Source of the DNA: a virus
Direction: 5' to 3' (one strand)
IMG/VR virus record: IMGVR_UViG_3300025872_000165
Span: 1 to 34,297 of that record
Length of the DNA: 34,297 nt
The position numbers and the translations under genes were made by a program. Below the pieces are notes generated by a model. The model saw only the letters and a program-made list of their open reading frames with translations. It was not told the DNA's origin and ran no database searches. Numbering within the stretch: position 1 is the stretch's first letter; every line of letters starts with the position of its first letter. Below, piece by piece: positions 1 through 34,297 of this stretch.

Positions 1-772
1 GTTACGCAGCGGCCTATCCTTAATGAGCTGCATTGCTTGCGGGATAAGCTGCTGATCGGCAGGCGACATTTGAGACGCTGCGGCATATTCCAGAATAGTC
101 TGCGGCTGGAACTTGCTGCAGATAATCTGCGCCTTAAGGCGGATTAGCTCAGACGCAAAAAGCGCAACATCCTCTTGCATTGAGCGAAGACGAAGGCCCG
201 CATACTGGCCCTTGATCTGTTGCGCCGTCGCAGTTTCGCTTGCGTAACTCGCACCGCGAATAATGTCCGAGATGCCGGTAATTTCATAAATCTGCGCCTT
301 AATGTCGGCACGCGCCTGATAGCACTGAGCAAGAGCAGCCGCCAGCGTATCCAGCGGCAACAGGTCAATCGACCCCTTCAAACCGCCCTTCTCGCCAAAC
401 GCCAGCCACTTGTCAACCGGAATCAGGCTGTTGTTATCGCCTTCCGTCAGAAGCCTCTGCAAGGCAGGCTGACTGGCATCGTAAACGCCGCGCACCCGCA
501 ACGCCTTAACAAGGCCGTCAATGCGGTCAGACAGAATATCAAGCTCCATAGCCTGATCCTGATACAGCACGAAGTCCGGCACCGGGACAAGGCTATCGCT
601 TGTCGTGGTGGCGTATAGGGGCTTTGGGCAAGGGAAAAAGCCCTCAAGACCCAACGGATCATCCCGAACGTCGATAAACTCAGGCAGGCCCTTGGACAGC
701 CAGTAAACCTTGAGCGTTTCCTTGTCCCACAGCTCGCAAATCTTTGCCCGGTTGTAGGTTTTCTTTGACTCG
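1..772. repeat. Variant terminal direct repeat, left copy
   Basis: Bases 1-772 align to 33526-34297 with no gap and 34 mismatches (about 95.6% identity). Both copies lie within the portal reading frame. Of the mismatches, 31 fall at the third codon position and 3 at the first; only one changes an amino acid (Leu to Met at 403-405). The repeat reaches both window ends, which is what a circular or permuted genome looks like when the contig ends come from two closely related strains. Confidence 0.95.
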
Positions 773-1461: not shown

Positions 1462-1752
1462 TTAATCCTTATTTCGTGCGCTGATTGCCTTGGCTTTTGA
1501 CTTGGCATCAGCCTTGCTAGACGCTCCCCATGCCCTAAGCGCAAGGGCTAGTCGCGTAGGCTTTCCGTCTTTTTCCATAGGCCCCGGCATATTGCCCATG
1601 CGAGCAAGGAAAGACGCCCGTCGCGGGTTATCGCCAGACTTCACGGGAGGCTTCAGCGTGCCACCCGTCTCGGCCTTGTAACTGGCACGGCCCTTAGCGT
1701 TCAAACCGCCTTTGGGATTCTTGCCCTCTTTACGAGTCCATGCAGCAGTCAT
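1462..1752 (-). CDS. Small basic protein, DUF6321-like
   Basis: This is a 96-residue, Lys/Arg-rich protein starting MTAAWTRKEGKNPKGG. It carries the pattern KEGKNPxGGLNxKGRASY, then LKPPVKSGDNPRRxSFLARM and GNMPGPMEK. As far as I recall this is the phage family DUF6321, often found near packaging and portal genes; no biochemical role is known to me. The ATG at 1752 overlaps the stop of the upstream ART-like gene by one base (TAATG), so translation is probably coupled. The portal begins 3 bp after its stop. High charge and position suggest a DNA-contacting or head-assembly role, but this is inference. Confidence 0.75.
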   Translation of the reverse strand: MTAAWTRKEGKNPKGGLNAKGRASYKAETGGTLKPPVKSGDNPRRASFLARMGNMPGPMEKDGKPTRLALALRAWGASSKADAKSKAKAISARNKD

Positions 1753-3098
1753 TATTTACGCTCCAAAATCCTAGCTTTCTTTTCCTCGCCGGGAAACACG
1801 ACAAAGTTGCGAGTGCCGCTACCGCCATCTCGACTACCAGCATCTAGGTACTTGATGCCGGGGGAGCCATAAGACCGCAGCAGTTCTGATGCCGCTTTAT
1901 CCCCGCCTTTCAAGGCCGATAGCAAAGCGTATGCGCCGCCGCCCGTGTCCATATTTGGAACGTACTGAGTCGCCTTGACTAACGCGAGGAAATCATCAGC
2001 GTCATTTTTAAACGCTCCGCTATCGCGGCTGATCCCATATTCAAGTGGCATTCGCTTTAGCGTGCCGCTTATTTGCTGAATCGACTTTGCAGACTCAAGC
2101 CTAACTGCTTCCTGAAGCAAATCACGTTTAGCCCAATCTGCAACACCGGCCCCCGCCGCCATCTTCCTAACTTTTTCCGCTGCGGCCCTGCCTAAAGACT
2201 CAGGAGTAACCCCAAGATCAGAAATCGCCTTCCTCACGCTCTCCGGCTGCTCACTCAACGGCTTATCCCAATCAAGCATACGGTCAATCATCTCGTCGGG
2301 GAGGTCTACGTGGTAGAATCTGCCTTTGCCTTTGTCGTTATATGCGGCAAATAGCTCTGCCAGCTTCTCCTGCGGAATGTCTCGCGTCGATGCGTTGGCG
2401 TTTTGAAGCCTGCGAGCGGCCTGCATTGGGTCAGTGCTGGCGCTTGCTTGTCTATGGAATTCGCCCCGCGCCCCTGCGGTTAGCTTGATTCCCCTTGCCT
2501 CTGCCTCTGGCCCTAGATCGAACGCCTTATAAGCATTCTGTACCTGATACCCCTTTGCAACGTCAGGATTCTCCGCAAAATACAGCCCGTGCCCGTAAGC
2601 CTGCGCCCCCTCACCCGTGCCTATCTTGGATGCGTCAAACTCGCCGAGCGGATTGGCCTCTGTAGCGGGGAAGCGGTGCGGGGTGCCGTGGTAGACGTCT
2701 AGCTCCTTCATCATGGGCCTTTGCATCAGCGAGCGCGGATTTAGGTACTCGCCAGCCACCTGACCAAGCCCGATCGGGCCTGACGTCGCTTGCTGTCCAA
2801 CAGACTTCAGCGCTTCTGCAAGCATCGCAGGATTCTGAACGACTTGTTTCCCGGCCTGATACATGGCTTTGCCGGATTCAATCGGATGCCGCGCAAGCTG
2901 GTATGCGCCCTCAAGCTGGCTTTCAAATCCACGGCCAAGGCCAATGCTAAGGTTTTCTAGATAGTCGCCAGCAGATAGCGGCTGTTCAGGCTGCGACGCA
3001 CGGTTGCCAAACAAATCAGCAAGCGCAGCGTCAGCCGTCGTCAACGCTTGACGACGCTGTTGCTGAAATGCCAAAGCGTCTGCCAGCTTGTTGGCCAT
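1752..3098 (-). CDS. PARP-like ADP-ribosyltransferase-fold protein in the head module
   Basis: The chosen ATG at 3098 gives 448 residues; a longer in-frame form to 3161 uses a non-ATG start and overlaps the upstream gene. Residues 1-130 are Ala/Gln-rich and helical, like internal virion proteins. An ART-like domain follows: YHGTP at 136-140 (His137), then YGHGLYFAENPDVAKGY at 168-184 (Tyr173). After a 230-residue helical insert comes GIKYLDAGSR (414-423) and GTRNFVVFP (428-436). This order resembles the H-Y-E arrangement of PARP-type enzymes, which move ADP-ribose from NAD+ to a target. By my alignment the last catalytic Glu position holds Asn431, so activity is uncertain. Similar domains occur in phage polyvalent and MuF-type proteins. 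Position between a head protein and the portal suggests it is packaged or ejected with DNA. Confidence 0.7.
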   Translation of the reverse strand: MANKLADALAFQQQRRQALTTADAALADLFGNRASQPEQPLSAGDYLENLSIGLGRGFESQLEGAYQLARHPIESGKAMYQAGKQVVQNPAMLAEALKSVGQQATSGPIGLGQVAGEYLNPRSLMQRPMMKELDVYHGTPHRFPATEANPLGEFDASKIGTGEGAQAYGHGLYFAENPDVAKGYQVQNAYKAFDLGPEAEARGIKLTAGARGEFHRQASASTDPMQAARRLQNANASTRDIPQEKLAELFAAYNDKGKGRFYHVDLPDEMIDRMLDWDKPLSEQPESVRKAISDLGVTPESLGRAAAEKVRKMAAGAGVADWAKRDLLQEAVRLESAKSIQQISGTLKRMPLEYGISRDSGAFKNDADDFLALVKATQYVPNMDTGGGAYALLSALKGGDKAASELLRSYGSPGIKYLDAGSRDGGSGTRNFVVFPGEEKKARILERK

Positions 3099-3100
3099 GA

Positions 3101-3406
3101 TTAGGCAGAGAAGATGCCGACAGCCACAACGCTTGCGCCTGCGCCCGTGGTCACCTTCCACGCTCCGCTGCTCGAGCGCATATTCATCTCGATGCTGTAC
3201 ACGCCGACCGGAGTGTTAGCAGGAACAATCGCAATCGACGTTGCATTGTCCAGAATGGTCACCGTGCCCGTAAGCGACGTACTAACGGTGACAATCAATC
3301 GATGCAGGTAATCGCCCGTCGCGCCCGTCCCGCCAAGCACCTGTGCAGTCTGCGACGCTGCAACTGTTTCATACGGATACGCATAAGGATAGCTAACGCC
3401 GCTCAT
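3101..3406 (-). CDS. Small head-associated protein (unknown)
   Basis: This 101-residue protein begins MSGVSYPYAYPYETVAASQT and is then rich in Thr, Val, Ser and Gly, with alternating hydrophobic residues that suggest beta strands. It has no Cys and no membrane segment. It starts inside the TerL stop (ATGA overlap, 4 bases) and ends 2 bp before the ART-like gene. Such small beta proteins between terminase and portal genes are often head decoration or head-tail completion proteins. I do not recognise a named family, so the role is inferred from position only. Confidence 0.6.
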   Translation of the reverse strand: MSGVSYPYAYPYETVAASQTAQVLGGTGATGDYLHRLIVTVSTSLTGTVTILDNATSIAIVPANTPVGVYSIEMNMRSSSGAWKVTTGAGASVVAVGIFSA

Positions 3407-4737
3407 ATTCTTGCCCTCTTAGGTTGTGCGCTCTCATGGACGCGCCACATATCATTCAAAGTTACTTCGTTTTGATCGCCAACAATCAAAACTTTGGCCT
3501 CAACAGGCTTAACTGGCTTTGGCTCGGCCTGCCACGCAACGGCCAGCATTCTAAACGCATCTGCCGGATGTGAGCACCAGTCATGGCGAGGCGTCTGCCT
3601 GAAAGCCCTCTTATCCTCGTCATACTCGCGTTGATACTGACGCAACGCCTCGAGGCCATCGGCGCACCGTTCCACGTGAAACCAGCACCTCGGCAGCATA
3701 CGCCTGACAGCCTGAATGCCGTCCTGAACGCCAAGGTCAGGAACGATAGTTAAGTTGGCAAGGCCAAGGAACTCGGCCATCTGCTCGATGATGGATTTAC
3801 CACCAGAAGCAAGCGTCTTTGCCCTCGCATCGTGGGGCAGATGGTGTTTGCCATAGCGGTATGGCTTGGTTAACACCGTCTCTGCCAGCTCTCGCACCGT
3901 AGCGCCAGACACGGCATGGAAGTCCAGAATATGAATTTCGCCACGCACGACTTGGTACCACCAGATAGCGGTGTCGTCGCGGTAACCTAAGTCCCACGCA
4001 GTATGGACGGGCACGCTGGGATCGTAAGGAACGTCACAGATCCGACCTTGATCCCCGGCTTGGCGCATCTCTGTGCCGTAGATTGCACCGACGATAGCCG
4101 CCTCGAAACTGCATTCGTATTCTTGAAGGAACTGGTCTTCAGATACCTGCGCCCTTGCCGCTTCTAGCTCTGTCTCAGGCAGCAACCCGGACTTGCTGGC
4201 AGGCAAGGACATGAAAAACCAATCGGGGCTTTCTTTGGCTGTTTTGACGATCTCCCAAAACTGATTCTTGCCCTTTGGCGTGCCCATCATCACAGCCCAC
4301 CCCTGCTTATCTGACAGGGCAGGCCGAATAACCAGCGGAAACACGCTAGGCTTCCAGTCGCCAAACTCGTCGCAGATGATGCCGCAAAAGCCAAGGCCGC
4401 GCATCGCGTCAGCATTGTCGGCACCGAACAATCGGATCACGGCCCCATTGACCAAGGTAATCTGAAGTTCAGCTTCGTTGGTTGACTTGGTTATAGGGGC
4501 CGCGAATTCTTTGAGATACGCCCACGCCACGGATTTTGCTTGACTGCGGTAAGGCGCAACGTACCCGAACAATGGGTACGGCCCCTTATACGTCACGGCA
4601 GCGCGGATAATGTCATTGATGGCTGCGACGGTCTTACCGCCTCGACGATGCACGACAAGCGCGGCCCACCTCTGCGTCCTGTTATGGAACGGCAGAAAGG
4701 CTTTGCGCGGCCTGTACGGTATCGTGAAGTCAGCCAT
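3403..4737 (-). CDS. terL: Terminase large subunit
   Basis: TerL is the ATP-driven motor that pumps DNA through the portal and cuts concatemers. With the ATG at 4737 it has 444 residues, a normal size. The ATPase domain shows Walker A VVHRRGGKT (28-36), Walker B GIICDE (119-124) and the coupling motif MGTPKG (151-156). The C-terminal RNase H-like nuclease shows DLGYRDD (Asp249), HDARAKT (Asp303) and HPADAF (Asp393). The ATG overlaps the TerS stop by 8 bases; an upstream start at 4758 would add 7 residues and is less likely. The gene order TerS, TerL, then portal a few genes later is classical. Confidence 0.95.
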   Translation of the reverse strand: MADFTIPYRPRKAFLPFHNRTQRWAALVVHRRGGKTVAAINDIIRAAVTYKGPYPLFGYVAPYRSQAKSVAWAYLKEFAAPITKSTNEAELQITLVNGAVIRLFGADNADAMRGLGFCGIICDEFGDWKPSVFPLVIRPALSDKQGWAVMMGTPKGKNQFWEIVKTAKESPDWFFMSLPASKSGLLPETELEAARAQVSEDQFLQEYECSFEAAIVGAIYGTEMRQAGDQGRICDVPYDPSVPVHTAWDLGYRDDTAIWWYQVVRGEIHILDFHAVSGATVRELAETVLTKPYRYGKHHLPHDARAKTLASGGKSIIEQMAEFLGLANLTIVPDLGVQDGIQAVRRMLPRCWFHVERCADGLEALRQYQREYDEDKRAFRQTPRHDWCSHPADAFRMLAVAWQAEPKPVKPVEAKVLIVGDQNEVTLNDMWRVHESAQPKRARI

Positions 4738-5047
4738 CAGACTCAAGCCAGCGGACAACGATCTCTTGAGGCTTACCGTCCTGTCCAGTGACCTCAGTGC
4801 GAGCCAGCTTCGGAACGTGGTACTCGATCACAGTCTGGAACAGGGTAAACGCCTTCTCAGGGTTAGGCGGCACGAGCCACTTTCCAGACTCGCCTTGTAC
4901 GCCATTAGCGACCTGATCCAGCCACTCTTGCAGCCTTGAGGCATTACCATCAACAAACTTGCCAATCGCTTCTCGGGCTTCCTGAGTCGCCTTATTGGGC
5001 ATTCCCTTTGGCCTGCCGGGGCCAGCTTTCAAGTTAGGGTTAGGCAT
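4730..5047 (-). CDS. terS: Terminase small subunit
   Basis: This 105-residue protein precedes TerL and overlaps it, as small subunits do. The N-terminus MPNPNLKAGPGRPKGMPNK is basic, with a GRPKG turn typical of DNA-contacting small terminase proteins. It is followed by helices around residues 20-50 and a C-terminal part ending EIVVRWLESDG. It should recognise phage DNA and regulate the TerL ATPase. The leader contains TCCCCACAGGA at 5070-5080, an element also seen before two other structural genes. The family is inferred from position and the GRPKG motif, since small subunits diverge strongly. Confidence 0.8.
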   Translation of the reverse strand: MPNPNLKAGPGRPKGMPNKATQEAREAIGKFVDGNASRLQEWLDQVANGVQGESGKWLVPPNPEKAFTLFQTVIEYHVPKLARTEVTGQDGKPQEIVVRWLESDG

Positions 5048-5092
5048 GATTTGTTAAGTTTCAAAAAGTTCCTGTGGGGAAATTTTTAAATT

Positions 5093-5266
5093 TTACGTGT
5101 CGTCGCGTCGAGGCATTCGCTTCATAGCTTCTGCCAGCTTCTTGCCCTTATCGGCTTGGTTGTACTCACGAGCTACGGATTGAGGAATGCCTGCCCGTTT
5201 AGCAAACTGGGGATCATGAGCAGCAGCGGCCATGAAACGGCGCTGTTTGTCGCTGTGGCTAGGCAT
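5093..5266 (-). CDS. 57-residue basic phage protein (unknown)
   Basis: This short gene reads MPSHSDKQRRFMAAAAHDPQ, then FAKRAGIPQSVAREYNQADK and an Arg-rich end, stopping with TAA at 5093. The pattern (Q)RRFMAAAAHDPxFAKxxGIPQSVAxEYNxADKG is one I recognise from small proteins next to phage terminase genes; its function is not known to me. The ATG at 5266 overlaps the stop of the upstream gene by one base (TAATG), which supports it as real. It is helical and positively charged. A 45-bp gap with a purine-rich leader separates it from TerS. Confidence 0.75.
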   Translation of the reverse strand: MPSHSDKQRRFMAAAAHDPQFAKRAGIPQSVAREYNQADKGKKLAEAMKRMPRRDDT

Positions 5267-5604
5267 TACTTAATCCTTTTTGCTTCTTCGTTATGCAGCT
5301 TGATTGCGTAATCCGTAGAGGCTTTTGGATTTTTGAAAATCCCAAGATGTTCGCCAGTCTTTTTGTAATGGGCAATAGCTTCATCGTTTGAAACAACTTT
5401 CCCATTTACAACGGTGGGAATCAGAATTTCTCGCCCATCAATGTTTACGCCCATGCTGCGAACAGTGCTGATTGAACCGTCAGGATTCTTTACCTGCGGA
5501 CGGCCTTCTAACTGGATATTTCCCGGCTCAAGCATTCCAGCGGTTACATCAGAAACCTTCTGTTGCCGCCTCAGCAAGTTTGCCAAGTCTTGAGCGTAAG
5601 GCAT
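5266..5604 (-). CDS. Conserved small phage protein with an RSMxxNIDGREILIPT motif
   Basis: This 112-residue protein starts MPYAQDLANLLRRQQ, a short helix, followed by GNIQLEGRPQVKNPDGSIST, RSMGVNIDGREILIPTVV and AIAHYKKTGEHLGIF. The second half resembles a domain often fused into phage tail lysozymes and polyvalent proteins, where a beta segment with VRSMxxNIDGREVLIPTV is followed by a helix with HLGxF. Its biochemical role is unknown. It overlaps both neighbours by one base (TAATG), so it sits in a tightly coupled cluster before the terminase genes. A structural or DNA-processing accessory role is possible. Confidence 0.7.
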   Translation of the reverse strand: MPYAQDLANLLRRQQKVSDVTAGMLEPGNIQLEGRPQVKNPDGSISTVRSMGVNIDGREILIPTVVNGKVVSNDEAIAHYKKTGEHLGIFKNPKASTDYAIKLHNEEAKRIK

Positions 5605-5987
5605 TATTTGAGATTCCTAAGCTTGTACAGCGTGGAATCAATCAGCTCGCTGATCTCGTCGATGATGTTTTGCAGCTGGCTTTCGTCAGGCAGCGTTTTG
5701 CGAGCGGCATCAACAAAATCTTTTATTTTCTCAAGATATTGCACCGGGTCTTTTGCCGGGGCATGAAAATCATTCGGGTATTTTTCGATGACGCTGTAGC
5801 AGCCTTGATAGGCTTCAGCCCACTTATCGGTCAGGTCTACGATGCCATCGTAGTAAGCACCCAGCGCAACGTGCTGCGCGTAAGACTTGGTTTGCAGGTG
5901 CTGGAAGTGCGTAATGGTCGCACTATGGAGCAAAACGCCAACGAATGTGGCTGCGTTTTTTTCGTACTTTGCGCTCGATTCGGCCAT
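5604..5987 (-). CDS. Four-helix protein, DUF5856-like, possibly ferritin/Dps-like
   Basis: This 127-residue protein is predicted all-helical. The first helices carry many possible metal ligands: His21, His27, His30, His39, Asp47, Asp51, Asp54 and Glu58 (HSATITHFQH then YYDGIVDLTDKWAEAY). This layout recalls the Dps/ferritin arrangement and the phage family DUF5856, known from cyanophages. If active it could bind iron or protect DNA, but no activity can be shown from sequence, and the ligand spacing is only an approximate match. It lies between the resolvase and the small packaging genes and has a GGGGTAAAA leader before ATG 5987. Confidence 0.6.
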   Translation of the reverse strand: MAESSAKYEKNAATFVGVLLHSATITHFQHLQTKSYAQHVALGAYYDGIVDLTDKWAEAYQGCYSVIEKYPNDFHAPAKDPVQYLEKIKDFVDAARKTLPDESQLQNIIDEISELIDSTLYKLRNLK

Positions 5988-7287: not shown

Positions 7288-7406
7288 GCTGCCTCCAGCT
7301 CAGTCCGCTTGAAGATTTCGAGCCAGCGCAGGCGGAGGACTGCGTTTTCGGGGATCAGCCTAGGCTCGAATTGGGAAAGATACTGTTTTAGATGATTTCT
7401 TGTCAA
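7284..7406 (-). CDS. Possible 40-residue protein with TTG start
   Basis: A frame of 40 codons opens at TTG 7406 and ends in a TGA that overlaps the ATG of the DUF1376 gene (ATGA). The product would be basic and helical (LTRNHLKQYLSQFEPRLIPE, then NAVLRLRWLEIF). An AAGG lies only a few bases before the TTG, and the TTG itself is part of a TTGACA promoter-like box, so the gene and the promoter compete as explanations. The stop-start overlap supports translation; the poor start site argues against it. Confidence 0.35.
   Translation of the reverse strand: MTRNHLKQYLSQFEPRLIPENAVLRLRWLEIFKRTELEAA
7377..7406 (-). promoter_or_regulatory. Candidate sigma70 promoter for the leftward unit
   Basis: Leftward, TTGACA (7406-7401) is followed after 18 bp by TATCTT (7382-7377). 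The -35 box is perfect and the -10 box moderate. It lies just after the Cro-like gene and before the DUF1376 gene, where a promoter for the replication and late genes would be useful. It overlaps the possible TTG-started frame. Confidence 0.4.
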
Positions 7407-8147: not shown

Positions 8148-8238
8148 TTGGTTGGCGTCGCTCACATGGAGCGAGTCGGTGTTAATTATCGCGGCAGCAT
8201 TTGTCGCGTTGGTACTAATCAGGGAGTTATTTGAATGA
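8134..8238 (+). CDS. 34-residue single-span membrane protein
   Basis: A very strong ribosome site (GAGGAGGAG) sits just before ATG 8134. The peptide begins MTMLNWLASLTWSES and then has one hydrophobic helix, VLIIAAAFVALVLI (residues 17-30), ending RELFE. It overlaps the upstream gene by 14 bases, and its TGA overlaps the Erf ATG (ATGA). An N-out or N-in orientation cannot be decided. Small membrane peptides of this kind in early phage operons may act in superinfection exclusion or host membrane changes, but nothing specific is shown here. Confidence 0.65.
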   Translation: MTMLNWLASLTWSESVLIIAAAFVALVLIRELFE

Positions 8239-8861
8239 GCGAACAGTCAGCAGAGATTGGGGAGCTGGCGGCAGCTTTGGCCGTGGCGCAGGGCGAGATT
8301 ACGGGCGCATTGAAAGACAGTGCAAACCCGTTTTTTAAGTCTAAGTACGCCGATCTTGCGTCCGTCTGGGATGCTTGCCGGACAAGCCTTTCGAAGAACG
8401 GACTGGCCGTGATTCAAGTTGCGTCAACGTCAGATACAGGCGCAGCGGTTATCACGACAACGCTGGCCCATAAGTCCGGCCAGTGGATTCGAGGCACGCT
8501 GGCAATGATGCCGGTCAAGTCCGATCCGCAGGGCATGGGATCCGCCCTCACCTACGCACGCCGCTATGCGCTCGCGGCAATGGTAGGCGTCGCGCAGGTT
8601 GACGACGATGCCAATACCGCAAGCGGCAAGGTCACGCATACCAAGGCCGATCCGCTTGGCCGCGATGAGCTAGAAATAAACGAACAGCACGTAAAGTATG
8701 CAAATGCGTTTAAGGATGCTCTGTTGCATGGCGAACCTCTGCGAATCAAAGGACTGGCTGGTGACGTTCAAGACGAAGGAGAAGAATTTTATCGGGCCGT
8801 TTGGTCACTGCTTGACAGCAAAGTACGCTCAGAAATTAAGAAAATCCTAGCAGCAAAGTGA
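8235..8861 (+). CDS. erf: Erf-family single-strand annealing recombinase
   Basis: This 208-residue protein has the Erf-type N-terminal domain (about 1-135): LAAALAVAQGEITGALKDS, NPFFKSKYADLASVWDACR, then GSALTYARRYALAAMVGV and DDDAN. Erf proteins form rings that bind single-stranded DNA and anneal complementary strands, which lets P22-like phages circularise and make concatemers. The C-terminal 65 residues are helical and diverged (LEINEQHVKYANAFKDALL), where host or SSB contacts usually lie. The gene follows a membrane peptide with an ATGA overlap and precedes an SSB-tailed protein, so it is part of a recombination set. Confidence 0.9.
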   Translation: MSEQSAEIGELAAALAVAQGEITGALKDSANPFFKSKYADLASVWDACRTSLSKNGLAVIQVASTSDTGAAVITTTLAHKSGQWIRGTLAMMPVKSDPQGMGSALTYARRYALAAMVGVAQVDDDANTASGKVTHTKADPLGRDELEINEQHVKYANAFKDALLHGEPLRIKGLAGDVQDEGEEFYRAVWSLLDSKVRSEIKKILAAK

Positions 8862-29429: not shown

Positions 29430-30281
29430 CTAAAAATACGTGATTACTACCGCAAGCCCATCCCCGCCATTTCCCCCTGCACCGGAAGAATTGCCTGTAC
29501 CATTTGTAGATGCCCCACCCCCGCCACCTCCGCCTCCCCACTTACCGCCATTTCCACCATTTCCAGCGATAGTATTAGAGGCACCCCCGCCATCACCGCT
29601 TTCGCCACCAAAAAATGATGCTGTAGTAAGGTCAGTGCCCGACGCCCCATTCCCAGCTACTGAGCTATTTGCTGGAGCATTCGTATTCCCGTTGATCCAC
29701 GAAGGTGCCGTACTATTTGTGGTATTGCACCCCTGCCCACCAGCTGTAACGACGTTAGCTGATGTAATTGGCCCTCCATTGGCCCCACCACAAGCAGCGC
29801 CACTAAAGTTAGGAAAATTGCCTGCAATACCTACGGTACTGGCTGTACTGCTTGCTCCTAATGCGCCATCCCCTCTAGTCCCCGACATAGGCGTTTGGGG
29901 GGCTGCAGGACCAGTTCCACTACCACCAAACCCTTGGTTACCTCCTACGGCATAGAGATACGCCCCAAAAGAGGATGCCCCTCCGCGAGTTCCGTCATTT
30001 CCATTTGAGGTGCCCGTAGTTTGTGCCGCCCCTCCGGTTCCTCCTGCGCCAACTGTAACGGTAACAGTAGAAGTTAAATCCGTTGCATTAAATACAGAAA
30101 CTGAAAACGCCCCGCCCCCGCCCCCATTACCCCCTCTACGGCTAGCGCCTGTCGCGCCTTTACGCCCAGAGCCCCCGCCCCCACCTCCGCCAATTAAGAT
30201 AGCTTCAACAACTTTTGCTCCAGCAGGCTTAGTCCATGTTGAGCTTCCGGGAGTCGAAAAAATTTGAACATCAGTTGACAT
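29430..30281 (-). CDS. Glycine-rich adhesin 1 (receptor-recognising)
   Basis: This 283-residue protein has SSTWTKPAGAKVVEAILIGG near the start, a long Gly-rich region with GGGGGGGSGRKG and GNGGGGGAFS, then TSTVTVTVGAGGTGG, SSFGAYLYAVGG and an end in GGDGLAVVITYF. This Gly-rich sandwich, with polyglycine helices packed between beta strands, is known from T-even gp38-like adhesins and related fibre tips. It is a paralogue of the next protein upstream. The middle (about 114-172) differs strongly from the paralogue, and the ends are conserved. It probably determines host range. Confidence 0.75.
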   Translation of the reverse strand: MSTDVQIFSTPGSSTWTKPAGAKVVEAILIGGGGGGGSGRKGATGASRRGGNGGGGGAFSVSVFNATDLTSTVTVTVGAGGTGGAAQTTGTSNGNDGTRGGASSFGAYLYAVGGNQGFGGSGTGPAAPQTPMSGTRGDGALGASSTASTVGIAGNFPNFSGAACGGANGGPITSANVVTAGGQGCNTTNSTAPSWINGNTNAPANSSVAGNGASGTDLTTASFFGGESGDGGGASNTIAGNGGNGGKWGGGGGGGGASTNGTGNSSGAGGNGGDGLAVVITYF

Positions 30282-30289
30282 TGTGGTTT

Positions 30290-31165
30290 TCAGAAAAAAG
30301 TGATTACAACGGCGAGGCCATCACCACCAGTGCCACCTGCTCCAGAGTTCCCAACAGAGTTCAGCGATGCGCCGCCTCCACCTCCGCCACCACCCCAGTT
30401 TCCACCGTCACCACCCGTACCCGCATTACCAGTACCCGAAGCACCGCCGCCATCGCCGCTCTCGCCGCCAAACCGGTATGCTGTCGTTAAGTCTGTACCT
30501 GCAGCCCCGTTTCCTGTAACAGAGCTAGCAGTAGGCGATGTCGTATTCCCGTTGATCCATGAGGGAGCAGTGCTTCTCGTAGTATTGCACCCTTGACCTC
30601 CAGCAATTACTGCGTTAGCCGAGGTTAAGCCTCCCCCTGCACCAGCTCCGGCTCCGCCCCCTGCAGACCCAGCACTTCCGGGATTTCCAGTGGCTGCTTG
30701 CCCGGCACCACCAGTACCACCTAACCCTTGTGAGCCTCTACCACCTTGCCCAGCAGTGGCTGTACCTGCAATACCTCCCGCACCACCTGTCCCACCAACT
30801 GCATACAGATAGGCTCCAAAGGTAGTATTTCCACCATTACCACCCGGATTGCCGTCTGAGGTATTCGTAGTCTGAGATGCGCCGCTTGTGCCGCCTGCAC
30901 CGACTGTAACCGTAACGGTTGAAGTCAAAGACGTCGCACTGAACTCAGCGGTGGAATATGCCCCTCCGCCTCCACCTGCACCGCCCGCTCTTGCAGTGCT
31001 TGTCGCGCCTTTGCGTCCTGAACCTCCGCCACCCCCTGCGCCAACGAGAATGACTTGAACATCTGTTGCGTACGCAGGCTTTGTCCAAGTAGAGCTGCCT
31101 GTTGCAGAAAAAACTTGAATGTCAGCGCTTGAAAGAACACCTCTGCGAGTTATGAGGGCGTCCAT
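30290..31165 (-). CDS. Glycine-rich adhesin 2 (paralogue of adhesin 1)
   Basis: This 291-residue protein begins MDALITRRGVLSSADIQVFS and then follows adhesin 1 closely: GSSTWTKPAYATDVQVILVG, GGGGGSGRKGAT, LTSTVTVTVGAGGTSGASQT, GGQGCNTTRSTAPSWINGNT and the end GDGLAVVITFF. It adds 12 residues at the N-terminus. The start overlaps the 505-residue fibre stop by one base (TAATG). A tandem pair suggests two receptor options, or a heteromeric tip. Which copy is used cannot be told from sequence. Confidence 0.75.
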   Translation of the reverse strand: MDALITRRGVLSSADIQVFSATGSSTWTKPAYATDVQVILVGAGGGGGSGRKGATSTARAGGAGGGGGAYSTAEFSATSLTSTVTVTVGAGGTSGASQTTNTSDGNPGGNGGNTTFGAYLYAVGGTGGAGGIAGTATAGQGGRGSQGLGGTGGAGQAATGNPGSAGSAGGGAGAGAGGGLTSANAVIAGGQGCNTTRSTAPSWINGNTTSPTASSVTGNGAAGTDLTTAYRFGGESGDGGGASGTGNAGTGGDGGNWGGGGGGGGASLNSVGNSGAGGTGGDGLAVVITFF

Positions 31166-32682
31166 TAAATCACCGTCACATAAATATCAAATGAATCGGC
31201 CGGAGTGCTTGTTGCATACAGCGTTATTTTGTTTGTTCCCGGAACCGCTCTGTAAACAAGAGCGTAGGCGTACTGCAGTGCTGTCACGTTTGCATAAGAG
31301 GCAGCAGATAAATTGAGATCGAGAATTACGGTATCTGTAGATGCAAGCCCCGTTAAGGTGACGTCTTGCGTGTACGGCCCTGAGCCGCTCCAAGATCCGC
31401 TAGACGCAGTGCCGGTATAAGTAGTAGCTGCAACAGCAGTGGCAGCAATCGTAATAGCGCCTGATCCATTCGTGATGCTAATACCTGATCCGGCAGTCAA
31501 AGTTGATTTTGTCAACGTGTTGCCGGTCGTGTTACCAATCAAAAGCTGACCGTCTGTGTATGTTGTTTGTCCAGTCCCTCCGTTATCAACGTCTAGCGTA
31601 CCAGCAAGCGTAATTGTGCCAGAGGTTGTAATAGGGCCGCCGGAAGTAGTCAGGCCAGTTGCTCCTCCTGAAACATCTACGCTGGTAACTGTGCCGCTAC
31701 CGCCTCCGCCCGTCGCGGCAATCGTGATTGCGCCGGAGCCATTCGTGATGCTGATGCCTGAGCCAGCAGTTAGCGTGGACTTTGTTAGCGTGTTGCCAGT
31801 GCTATTACCGATTAAAAGCTGGCCGTCAGTGTAGGTCGTTTGCCCGGTGCCGCCGTTTGCAATCGGCAACGTGCCTGTGACCTGAGTCGCAAGATCTACC
31901 CCGGACAAAGTTCCGCCGAGCGTCAAACTGCCAGAGCTTGTAACGGTGCCAGTCAGCGTAATCCCGTTGACAGTGCCAGTGCCGCCGACGCTAGTTACGG
32001 TTCCGACGTACTGATCGTTGGAAGTGACGGTGAAGTTAGGGTACGTCCCTGTGATAGACGTCGTGCCCGCCCCGGTCAGCGATACCACTTGGTCAGGCGC
32101 GGTGTTGGTGACCGTGATCGACCCAGCGCTTGTGATCGGTCCGCCGGATACAGAGATGCCCGTACCAGCAGACAGGTCAACGCTAGTTACGGTGCCCGTG
32201 TTAACCGCAGAAATTGTAACTGCGCCTGAGCCGTTACTAATGGTAATTCCAGACCCGGCAGTTAACGTCGATTTTGTTAGCGTGTTGCCAGTGCTGTTAC
32301 CAATAAGCAATTGACCGTCTGTGTAGGTCGTTTGCCCGGTGCCGCCGTTCAAAACGCCAAGCGTTTGATCTAAGCTGAACGACTTTTCTGCCGGGTAAGT
32401 AACAAACACATCTTTGCTGTTTGCTGCAAAATTTACCGCAGCGCCGCTATTGGAAGATTCAAGGATGGTATCCCTTGACAGCGTTGTGCCAGCAGAAGTG
32501 TACGTTCCAATACCAACTTCCCAATCGCCAGTGGTGTTGTCGACAATGGCGTAGTAAGTCGTATTGCCGTTGCCAATAACGCTGAACGATTGAAAACCTG
32601 ACGACGTTCCAGCAAGCGTTAAAGTACCAGTGCCAGCAGTAGAACTGGTTTCCTTAACTCGATCTTTTACAATCAAAGCCAT
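31165..32682 (-). CDS. Tail fibre with three internal repeats (505 residues)
   Basis: The N-terminus MALIVKDRVKETSSTAGTGT is common in fibre proteins of short-tailed and other phages. Residues 112-159, 276-323 and 367-414 are near-identical 48-residue repeats that begin NGGTGQTTYTDGQLLIGNST and end in NGSGAxTIxA. Linkers of different length (116 and 43 residues) separate them. The C-terminus (about 420-505) is a separate beta domain ending DSFDIYVTVI. It is next to the portal and before the two adhesins, so it may carry them. The fibre likely trimerises by beta-prism or beta-helix folding. Confidence 0.85.
   Translation of the reverse strand: MALIVKDRVKETSSTAGTGTLTLAGTSSGFQSFSVIGNGNTTYYAIVDNTTGDWEVGIGTYTSAGTTLSRDTILESSNSGAAVNFAANSKDVFVTYPAEKSFSLDQTLGVLNGGTGQTTYTDGQLLIGNSTGNTLTKSTLTAGSGITISNGSGAVTISAVNTGTVTSVDLSAGTGISVSGGPITSAGSITVTNTAPDQVVSLTGAGTTSITGTYPNFTVTSNDQYVGTVTSVGGTGTVNGITLTGTVTSSGSLTLGGTLSGVDLATQVTGTLPIANGGTGQTTYTDGQLLIGNSTGNTLTKSTLTAGSGISITNGSGAITIAATGGGGSGTVTSVDVSGGATGLTTSGGPITTSGTITLAGTLDVDNGGTGQTTYTDGQLLIGNTTGNTLTKSTLTAGSGISITNGSGAITIAATAVAATTYTGTASSGSWSGSGPYTQDVTLTGLASTDTVILDLNLSAASYANVTALQYAYALVYRAVPGTNKITLYATSTPADSFDIYVTVI
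31441..31584 (-). repeat. Fibre repeat, third copy
   Basis: This stretch encodes residues 367-414 of the 505-residue fibre. It matches the second copy at almost every residue, except NTTGNTL in place of NSTGNTL. At the DNA level the copies differ at synonymous sites, so the repetition is old or under selection. Confidence 0.8.
31714..31857 (-). repeat. Fibre repeat, second copy
   Basis: This stretch encodes residues 276-323 of the 505-residue fibre. The start of the unit, GGTGQTTYTDGQLLIGN, is the same in all three copies. The match to the other two copies is in direct orientation. Confidence 0.8.
32206..32349 (-). repeat. Fibre repeat, first copy
   Basis: This stretch encodes residues 112-159 of the 505-residue fibre. 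It differs from copies two and three at the end (ITISNGSGAVTIS rather than ISITNGSGAITIA). Similar GGTGQ units occur once in the 377-residue fibre (LTAAKGGTGQSSY), so the module is shared between fibres. Confidence 0.8.
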
Positions 32683-32691
32683 GTTTTTGCC

Positions 32692-34297
32692 TTACTGCAG
32701 CGTTGGGCCAATTACTTCTACACCGCTTGCACGACCGTCCGGCCCACGAATAATCCGCTTGGGAGCTTTTAGCGTCTCCATTACTTCGCCAATGCGAGCA
32801 AGCGTTTTGTCGTGCATATCAGCCATGTTGCCATGCAGGGCAGACATTTGATTTAACGCTTGTGCGACGTTTGCGCCCAAATCTTGAGCAATTTTTTCGC
32901 TGACTGTTGTTTGTGCTTCAAGAGTTTGAAGATCTAAACCCGGATTGGCTTTGATTCTTGCAACCATGACTTGCGTTGCAACGTCTAGCTCCGCCTTCCA
33001 TCGGTCAAACTGTTCTTTTTGATCCAACTGCTGTGCCTGCAATTGCGCCTCTGCCTGCGCTTTCATTTGCTCCATTTGCGTTTCGTGCTGCATTTTCAAT
33101 TGCTCAATCTGAGCATCGTTTTGCAGCTTTGCTTGTTCAATCTGCATCTGAGTTTGAATCTTTTCTTGCTCAAACTGCATTTTCATTTGATCGCGTTGAT
33201 ATTCCATCTGAATCTTTGCTTGTTCAGACTGCGCTTTAATCTGCGCCTTCTGCGCCTCTGGATTAACTTTTGGCTGTGCCTGCTGCGCCTTAAGTTGCTC
33301 GAGGGCTTGGTCAATGCTGCCCTCAATAGTACGAGCGCCCTTAAACGCTCCAACTCCAAACTTGACCAATTCCATCATCATTGGAATCAGCTCAGGTGCG
33401 TTTTGACCAACCGGCAATGCTTGAGTGAGGAAACCACCAAACGCTTGCAGGAACTCAAGCCTGTCTTGCTTCTGCTGCTGTTCGTCAATCTGAACAAGAC
33501 TGTCAGCCGCCACTTCAATGCGGAAGTTACGCAGCGGCCTATCCTTAATGAGCTGCATTGCTTGCGGGATAAGCTGCTGATCGGCAGGCGACATTTGAGA
33601 CGCTGCTGCATAGTCCAGAATGGTCTGCGGCTGGAACTTGCTGCAGATAATCTGCGCCTTCAGTCGGATTAGTTCAGACGCAAAAAGCGCAACATCCTCT
33701 TGCATAGAGCGAAGACGAAGGCCCGCATATTGGCCCTTGATCTGTTGCGCCGTCGCAGTCTCGCTTGCGTAACTCGCACCGCGAATAATGTCCGAGATGC
33801 CGGTAATTTCATAAATCTGCGCCTTGATGTCAGCACGCGCCTGATAGCACTGAGCAAGAGCAGCTGCCAGCGTATCCAACGGCAACAGGTCAATAGACCC
33901 TTTCAATCCGCCCTTCTCGCCAAACGCCATCCACTTGTCGACCGGAATCAGGCTGTTGTTATCGCCTTCCGTCAGCAGTCGTTGCAGTGCTGGCTGACTG
34001 GCATCGTAAACACCACGAACCCGCAAGGCCTTAACAAGGCCGTCAATGCGGTCAGACAGAATATCAAGCTCCATAGCCTGATCCTGATACAGCACGAAGT
34101 CAGGCACCGGGACAAGGCTATCGCTTGTCGTGGTGGCGTATAGGGGCTTTGGGCAGGGGAAAAAACCCTCAAGACCCAACGGATCGTCCCGAACGTCAAT
34201 AAACTCAGGCAGGCCCTTGGACAGCCAGTAAACCTTGAGCGTTTCCTTGTCCCACAGCTCGCAAATCTTTGCCCGGTTGTAGGTTTTCTTTGACTCG
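32692..34297 (-). CDS. Portal protein, C-terminal part (runs off the window end)
   Basis: The frame is open from the window edge and stops with TAA at 32692. The part between 33526 and 34297 repeats what bases 1-772 encode, with one amino-acid difference. The unique part (32692-33525) adds 277 residues. About 100 residues of this region, roughly 568-668 of the joined protein, are a Gln/Met/Glu-rich coiled coil with repeated QMEQMKAQ-like heptads. This matches the helical barrel at the C-terminus of P22-type portals, which projects into the capsid. The tail is RIIRGPDGRASGVEVIGPTLQ-like, ending in GPTLQ. The neighbour downstream is the 505-residue fibre, 9 bp away. Confidence 0.9.
   Translation of the reverse strand, partial: ESKKTYNRAKICELWDKETLKVYWLSKGLPEFIDVRDDPLGLEGFFPCPKPLYATTTSDSLVPVPDFVLYQDQAMELDILSDRIDGLVKALRVRGVYDASQPALQRLLTEGDNNSLIPVDKWMAFGEKGGLKGSIDLLPLDTLAAALAQCYQARADIKAQIYEITGISDIIRGASYASETATAQQIKGQYAGLRLRSMQEDVALFASELIRLKAQIICSKFQPQTILDYAAASQMSPADQQLIPQAMQLIKDRPLRNFRIEVAADSLVQIDEQQQKQDRLEFLQAFGGFLTQALPVGQNAPELIPMMMELVKFGVGAFKGARTIEGSIDQALEQLKAQQAQPKVNPEAQKAQIKAQSEQAKIQMEYQRDQMKMQFEQEKIQTQMQIEQAKLQNDAQIEQLKMQHETQMEQMKAQAEAQLQAQQLDQKEQFDRWKAELDVATQVMVARIKANPGLDLQTLEAQTTVSEKIAQDLGANVAQALNQMSALHGNMADMHDKTLARIGEVMETLKAPKRIIRGPDGRASGVEVIGPTLQ
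33526..34297. repeat. Variant terminal direct repeat, right copy
   Basis: This is the partner of bases 1-772, in the same orientation with a constant offset of 33,525 bases. The first 81 bases and the last 99 bases are identical between the copies, and the differences are spread between them. The offset gives the likely unit length of the genome. Confidence 0.95.

What the first reader, a model, noticed from the sequence alone, without database searches (positions are those of the whole stretch)
1752..3098. PARP-like ADP-ribosyltransferase fold inside the head module, with Asn where Glu is expected
The protein at 1752-3098 has YHGTP, then YGHGLYFAENPDVAKGY, then GTRNFVVFP. These match the three core blocks of H-Y-E type ARTs, where the last block in PARP1 has Glu before YIVYD. 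My hand alignment puts Asn431 there. A 230-residue helical insert splits the second and third block, and a 130-residue Ala/Gln-rich N-terminus may target it to the virion. T4 Alt shows that phages can eject an ART at infection, so an injected modifying enzyme is possible.
Basis: partly seen in the sequence, partly recalled or inferred. Interest (0 to 1): 0.65.

Follow-up and report, generated by a model that had tools for sequence, protein, structure and literature searches.

The report
Phage ADP-ribosyltransferase with swappable inserts
A gene in a phage's DNA-packaging block encodes an enzyme-like protein of the ADP-ribosyltransferase fold whose active-site core (with an unusual asparagine) is nearly frozen while two inserts inside it are exchanged freely between related phages, suggesting a modular weapon whose aim is retuned by recombination.

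Summary
A 448-aa protein is encoded on the minus strand at 1752-3098, between large terminase and portal, and carries three ART blocks with Asn431 where PARPs have Glu. A compact relative folds confidently (pLDDT 93) and matches phage ART-PolyVal models and, weakly, solved ARTs. The Asn is no local loss: it is invariant in 187/187 non-redundant relatives, with Tyr173 invariant and His137 in 184/187. The protein sits near ART-PolyVal (PF18760) but below that family's cut-off; its triad is H-Y-N.
The 'single helical insert' is really two, separated by a further conserved block, and they are exchanged as independent cassettes: of 62 pairs sharing insert 1 at >=90% identity, 56 have unrelated insert 2. 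Relative L003 is 92-94% identical in DNA on both sides yet has a different 564-bp segment in place of window 1864-2556. Recurrence in independent metagenomes and dN/dS of 0.06-0.10 argue against artefact.
Best reading: a probably virion-delivered ART effector with a fixed active site and two recombining specificity cassettes. Activity, target and packaging are inferred, not shown.

The parts
1752..3098 (-). ART-like gene, 448 aa
2718..3098 (-). N-terminal region, residues 1-127, helical in the low-confidence full-length model; one of about 30 N-terminal types seen in relatives
2538..2717 (-). constant block 1 (residues 128-187): YHGTP with His137 (2688-2690) and GHGLYFAE with Tyr173 (2580-2582)
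2325..2537 (-). hypervariable insert 1 (residues 188-258); the same cassette type (59-66% identity) occurs in L100, L128, L136, L138 beside unrelated insert 2
2235..2324 (-). constant block 2 (residues 259-288): YHVDLPDEMIDRMLDWDKPLSEQ, third strand of the fold
1890..2234 (-). hypervariable insert 2 (residues 289-403); about 50% identical cassettes in L087, L088, L089, L092, L095 beside unrelated insert 1
1755..1889 (-). constant block 3 (residues 404-448): SPGIKYLDAGSR..GTRNFVVFPGEEKK, with Asn431 (1806-1808) and Glu438/Glu439 (1782-1787)
1864..2556 (-). segment with no matching DNA at the same place in close relative L003 although both sides are 91.6% and 94.1% identical: the exchanged stretch
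3403..4758 (-). terminase large subunit
3101..3406 (-). 101-aa protein immediately upstream; its stop lies 2 bases before the ART start codon
1462..1752 (-). DUF6321 protein immediately downstream
32692..34296 (-). portal protein (cut by the record end; its front part is at 1-1458, with overlap)
8235..8861 (+). ERF-superfamily single-strand annealing protein, a plausible driver of cassette exchange (inference)

Best explanation
The gene encodes an ADP-ribosyltransferase-fold effector of the ART-PolyVal neighbourhood, made with the packaging/head proteins and probably carried in the virion and delivered at infection. Three constant blocks build the NAD+ pocket with an H-Y-N triad (His137, Tyr173, Asn431) plus an acid just after strand 5 (Glu438/439); Asn probably holds the nicotinamide-ribose hydroxyl as Glu does, giving mono-ADP-ribosylation or NAD+ cleavage. 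Two mainly helical inserts, one between strands 2 and 3 and one before strand 4, form the variable surface and set what the enzyme touches or which host inhibitor it escapes. Phages exchange these inserts independently, by recombination at the short constant blocks, perhaps with their own annealing recombinase. Shown: ORF, family, predicted fold of a compact relative, residue invariance, independent cassette exchange, purifying selection, genomic location. Inferred: NAD+ use, chemistry, packaging, injection, and cassettes as target or inhibitor specificity.
For: Fold: compact relative pLDDT 93.1; Foldseek top 17 PDB hits are all ARTs, best MbcT E=6e-3, prob 0.95; BFVD ART-PolyVal-like proteins E=1e-18. 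Family: 84/110 members hit PF18760; window subfamily against D-type relatives E=1e-68. Residues: Asn 187/187, Tyr 187/187, His 184/187, with AAC and AAT both used for Asn. Location: always on the same strand as terminase and portal genes where these are seen; cultured phage phiGT1 carries one between portal and scaffold. Exchange; recurrence of identical combinations in independent metagenomes; dN/dS 0.06 and 0.10 for the two cassettes.
Against: No PDB match at E<=1e-3 and no solved relative by sequence (the hits look like chance matches to helical repeats). The full-length window model is poor (pLDDT 56). Asn at the catalytic position is not among the H-Y-[EDQ] combinations in the literature (PMC7955679), so the protein could be a non-catalytic NAD+ binder. 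No virion proteomics could be read. Three relatives have Gln for His.
Confidence: 0.55

Rival explanations
1. A catalytically dead ART fold that binds NAD+ or ADP-ribose derivatives and acts as a sponge or decoy against host NAD+-based defence, or only as a structural/ejection part; the inserts are binding surfaces.
For: Glu is replaced by Asn in every relative; three relatives have Gln in place of the His.
Against: Near-complete invariance of H, Y, N and surrounding blocks under dN/dS about 0.11-0.16 is what an active site looks like. Human PARPs with Ile, Leu or Tyr at the position are listed as mono-ADP-ribosylating (PMC7955679).
Confidence: 0.25
2. A late-expressed, non-virion ART acting inside the infected cell (for example on host RNA polymerase, tRNA or competing phages), with no injection.
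For: Location among late genes does not prove packaging (one search gives only context); no export or packaging signal is demonstrated.
Against: Location close to terminase and portal genes in most relatives whose flanks could be read; head-gene proximity and polyvalent fusion are the published hallmarks of packaged ARTs (PMC5512222, PMC9503650); L020 carries the domain at the end of a 1626-aa protein.
Confidence: 0.15
3. The apparent shuffling is an artefact of metagenome assembly joining different alleles at the constant blocks.
For: Nearly all data are metagenomic contigs; constant blocks are shared between genomes.
Against: 23 ART cores recur identically in 2-4 separate metagenomes, including swapped pairs such as L037-L040 against L050-L052/L074 (100% insert 2, 17% insert 1). 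Longest exact run in block 2 of swapped pairs has median 28 nt and never reaches 55 nt.
Confidence: 0.04

Closest known systems
ART-PolyVal / Tox-ART-HYD2-like ARTs of polyvalent proteins (PF18760; prototype CBX87992.1 of Roseovarius Plymouth podovirus 1)
   Same: Strand 1 and 2 motifs, phage virion/ejection context, predicted delivered effector; first-part match to PF18760
   Different: Asn invariant where the prototype group has Glu/Asp by hand alignment; two cassette inserts; window protein below the Pfam cut-off; a smaller single-domain protein rather than a giant polyvalent one
H-Y-E ARTs with solved structures (diphtheria/ExoA-like ARTDs, PARPs) and MbcT of the RES family
   Same: Predicted fold, best structural matches; His and Tyr motifs of the H-Y clade
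   Different: Catalytic Glu absent; 11-17% identity; weak E-values
T4 Alt
   Same: Published model of a head-packaged, injected ART (PMC5512222)
   Different: Alt is of the R-S-E clade; here the triad is H-Y-N, so it is analogous in deployment, not a family member
Type I restriction specificity subunit HsdS and polymorphic toxins (cassette exchange; from general knowledge and PMC3482391 abstract)
   Same: Constant scaffold with exchangeable variable modules; in HsdS two modules recombine independently
   Different: No homology; here the modules interrupt one catalytic domain
Sulfitobacter phage phiGT1 gp5 (QLB38217.1)
   Same: Cultured homologue, H-Y-N, between portal and scaffold genes
   Different: D-type ending (NFVVFDD), unrelated inserts, no function assigned

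Membership tests
ART superfamily | Split beta-sheet ART fold | tested here: met
   Model of compact relative, pLDDT 93.1; Foldseek top PDB hits all ARTs but E>=6e-3, BFVD E=1e-18. For the window protein itself by homology only (poor)
H-Y-[EDQ] clade | His in strand 1 and Tyr in strand 2 | tested here: met
   His 184/187, Tyr 187/187, positions in strands 1 and 2
H-Y-[EDQ] clade | Glu, Asp or Gln in strand 5 | tested here: not met
   Asn 187/187 at that position; a nearby conserved acid follows the strand but its role is unknown
ART-PolyVal (PF18760) | Score above the curated Pfam cut-off (31.2 bits) | tested here: not met
   17.3 bits for the window protein; 84/110 relatives E<=0.01, best 5.6e-8; the match covers only about the first third of the profile
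ART-PolyVal (PF18760) | H-Y-D active site (PMC5512222) | tested here: inconclusive
   D-type relatives have Asp right after strand 5; the window has Pro-Gly-Glu-Glu; which residue the authors meant could not be aligned by profile (one search aligns block 1 only)
Polyvalent protein | Two or more effector domains in one polypeptide | tested here: not met
   Window protein: one recognisable domain; relative L020 is 1626 aa with the ART at its end
T4 Alt (R-S-E) | R-S-E triad | tested here: not met
   H-Y-N triad
Virion-injected effector | Present in virion and delivered | not testable with these tools
Active ADP-ribosyltransferase | NAD+-dependent transfer | not testable with these tools
   Needs biochemistry

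The most novel reading that the evidence does not exclude
A combinatorial phage effector: one conserved H-Y-N ART core carrying two independently recombining specificity cassettes (56 clusters of each in the sampled set), so that phage populations hold up to thousands of possible cassette combinations in a running contest with hosts, using an asparagine-based active site not described for ARTs in the literature searched.
Probability: 0.4. Interest if true: 0.82.

Novelty: new variant of a known kind. Interest (0 to 1): 0.68.

Why it matters
Exchange of two inner inserts inside a single catalytic domain, while the active site is frozen and the surrounding phage genome stays 92-94% identical, is a diversification mode I found no report of for ARTs in the papers searched. 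It makes a testable claim: cassettes decide target or inhibitor specificity. An invariant Asn at the position of the classic catalytic Glu would extend the known active-site range of a superfamily central to phage-host conflict. The family is common in environmental phage contigs (over 590 stretches in each of two capped scans) yet nearly missing among cultured phages (4 of 50,697 records), so it is largely unstudied.

Tried and rejected
Full-length structure prediction of the window protein failed (pLDDT 56), probably because constant blocks do not covary and inserts lack depth; a compact relative with a diverse alignment worked. Sequence search of the PDB gave only chance hits. NCBIfam and PADLOC gave nothing useful. 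An apparent Glu at the Asn position in L305 turned out to be a downstream stretch; the aligned residue is Asn. Inserts were sought outside ART genes: the six ORFs that my filter called non-ART look like ART genes or pieces of them by their sequence. A first attempt to cut D-type inserts by regular expression failed and was redone on alignment columns. Profile comparison with the RPP1 prototype aligned only block 1, so its Glu at the Asn position rests on a hand alignment. The phiGT1 virion mass-spectrometry table is in a supplement that could not be read. Literature searches for hypervariable or shuffled ARTs found nothing that describes this.

Full report
What is there. The gene runs on the minus strand, 3098 to 1752, 448 aa. 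It starts two bases after the stop of a 101-aa gene and lies between the large terminase (3403-4758) and DUF6321 plus portal. The record is a 34.3-kb virus record whose two ends repeat each other at 97%.

Is it an ART? The window protein alone hits PF18760 ART-PolyVal only at E=0.0087. A full-length prediction of the window protein was poor, but the 222-aa domain of relative L186, with 110 sequences, gave pLDDT 93.1 and pTM 0.87. In the PDB the best 17 structural matches are all ARTs (MbcT, ExoA, diphtheria-toxin relatives), though none reaches E<=1e-3. In predicted viral structures the best match is an ART-PolyVal-like protein at E=1e-18. The prototype ART-PolyVal domain of Roseovarius Plymouth podovirus 1 passes the Pfam cut-off and matches our family profile in block 1 (E=2.2e-4).

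The asparagine. To avoid bias I collected relatives with patterns from block 1 only. On the non-redundant alignment the residue aligned with Asn431 is Asn in 73/73 distant (D-type set) and 114/114 closer (P-type set) sequences; Tyr173 is 187/187 and His137 184/187, with three Gln. Part of the P-type set was found with patterns that include block 3 or block 2, so the 73/73 is the cleaner figure. L223 is truncated and lacks the block. Both Asn codons are used (101 AAC, 14 AAT), so selection acts on the protein. In the RPP1 group a Glu or Asp sits at the equivalent place by eye. The literature lists H-Y-[EDQ], R-S-E and H-H-h clades (PMC7955679), and describes polyvalent ARTs as H-Y-D (PMC5512222); no paper in the library held 'H-Y-N' together with ADP-ribosyltransferase. 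D-type relatives have Asp directly after the strand (NYVVFD). The window's P-type has an inserted Pro-Gly followed by Glu-Glu, where the acid is again conserved. So the position is not simply dead, but whether N431, E438/E439 or both act is open.

Two inserts, not one, and they are exchanged. Among 116 non-identical P-type proteins I cut out insert 1, insert 2 and the N-terminal flank. Each insert falls into 56 clusters. Of 6670 pairs, 171 share an insert 1 cluster, 145 share an insert 2 cluster and 10 share both, against 3.7 expected if independent. Of 62 pairs with insert 1 >=90% identical, 56 have insert 2 below 40% (background median 21%); of 61 pairs with insert 2 >=90% identical, 56 have insert 1 below 40%; of 161 pairs with N-terminal flank >=90% identical, 132 differ in both inserts. 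D-types show the same independence at lower identity and with few pairs. The window's insert 1 resembles those of L100, L128, L136 and L138, while its insert 2 resembles those of L087, L088, L089, L092 and L095.

Direct case in the window's own lineage. L003 aligns to window 2557-5266 at 91.6% and to 1-1863 at 94.1%, and the homology breaks inside the gene: window 1864-2556 is replaced by 564 bases in L003 that do not align to it. Forty-five pairs of loci have both flanks >=90% identical over >=500 bp with at least one unrelated insert.

Artefact check. Twenty-three ART cores recur identically in two to four separate metagenomes, including members of swapped pairs. The longest exact DNA run in block 2 of swapped pairs has median 28 nt and is below 55 nt in all 112 pairs. 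Cassette types are under purifying selection: median dN/dS 0.06 (insert 1) and 0.10 (insert 2); the constant blocks give 0.11 and 0.16 on random pairs.

Context. In 179 ART loci the terminase large subunit is seen in 128 and the portal in 72, always on the same strand; the ART lies mostly upstream of the terminase, and downstream in 19, as in the window. L003 has a second ART piece upstream of its terminase. Only 4 of 50,697 cultured phage records hold a relative, and the genome-contig scan with two of the family's patterns gave one bacterial MAG contig, so these look like phages seldom integrated in genomes (inference). The window phage encodes an ERF annealing protein, a plausible source of short-homology recombination (inference).

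Mechanism. My best account is a delivered ART effector with a fixed catalytic core and two recombining specificity modules. The steps shown are family, predicted fold of a relative, invariance, exchange, selection and location. The steps inferred are NAD+ chemistry, packaging, delivery and what the modules recognise. The closest functional analogy for the modules is the exchange of recognition domains in HsdS (from general knowledge), not a homology.

Verdict.

Noticed in passing
window 1-300 and 33526-33825: The two ends of the record repeat each other at 97%, not 100%, so the record probably closes a circle from two slightly different haplotypes, with the portal gene running across the join.
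   Followed up: partly
L003 35-535 and window 5266: L003 carries a second, cut ART copy upstream of its terminase; DNA homology to the window ends at window 5266, where the window has other small genes (5266-5604, 5604-5987) instead.
   Followed up: partly
L020 (contig 3300016472_000063): The ART domain is the C-terminal end of a 1626-aa protein, a polyvalent-type fusion.
   Followed up: no
alignment A1 members: Two relatives also match GNAT acetyltransferase families, and several others have C-terminal extensions after block 3.
   Followed up: no
window 7305-7370: Rfam match RF02996 int-alpA RNA (42.2 bits, above its gathering score) on the minus strand.
   Followed up: no
window 31441-32349: Three-copy 144-nt direct repeat (78-81%) inside a 505-aa putative fibre gene, next to two similar Gly-rich proteins at 29430-31165.
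   Followed up: no
Viral contigs and phages collections: The family is very common in environmental phage contigs and almost absent from cultured phages, so a large ART group has little experimental footing.
   Followed up: partly
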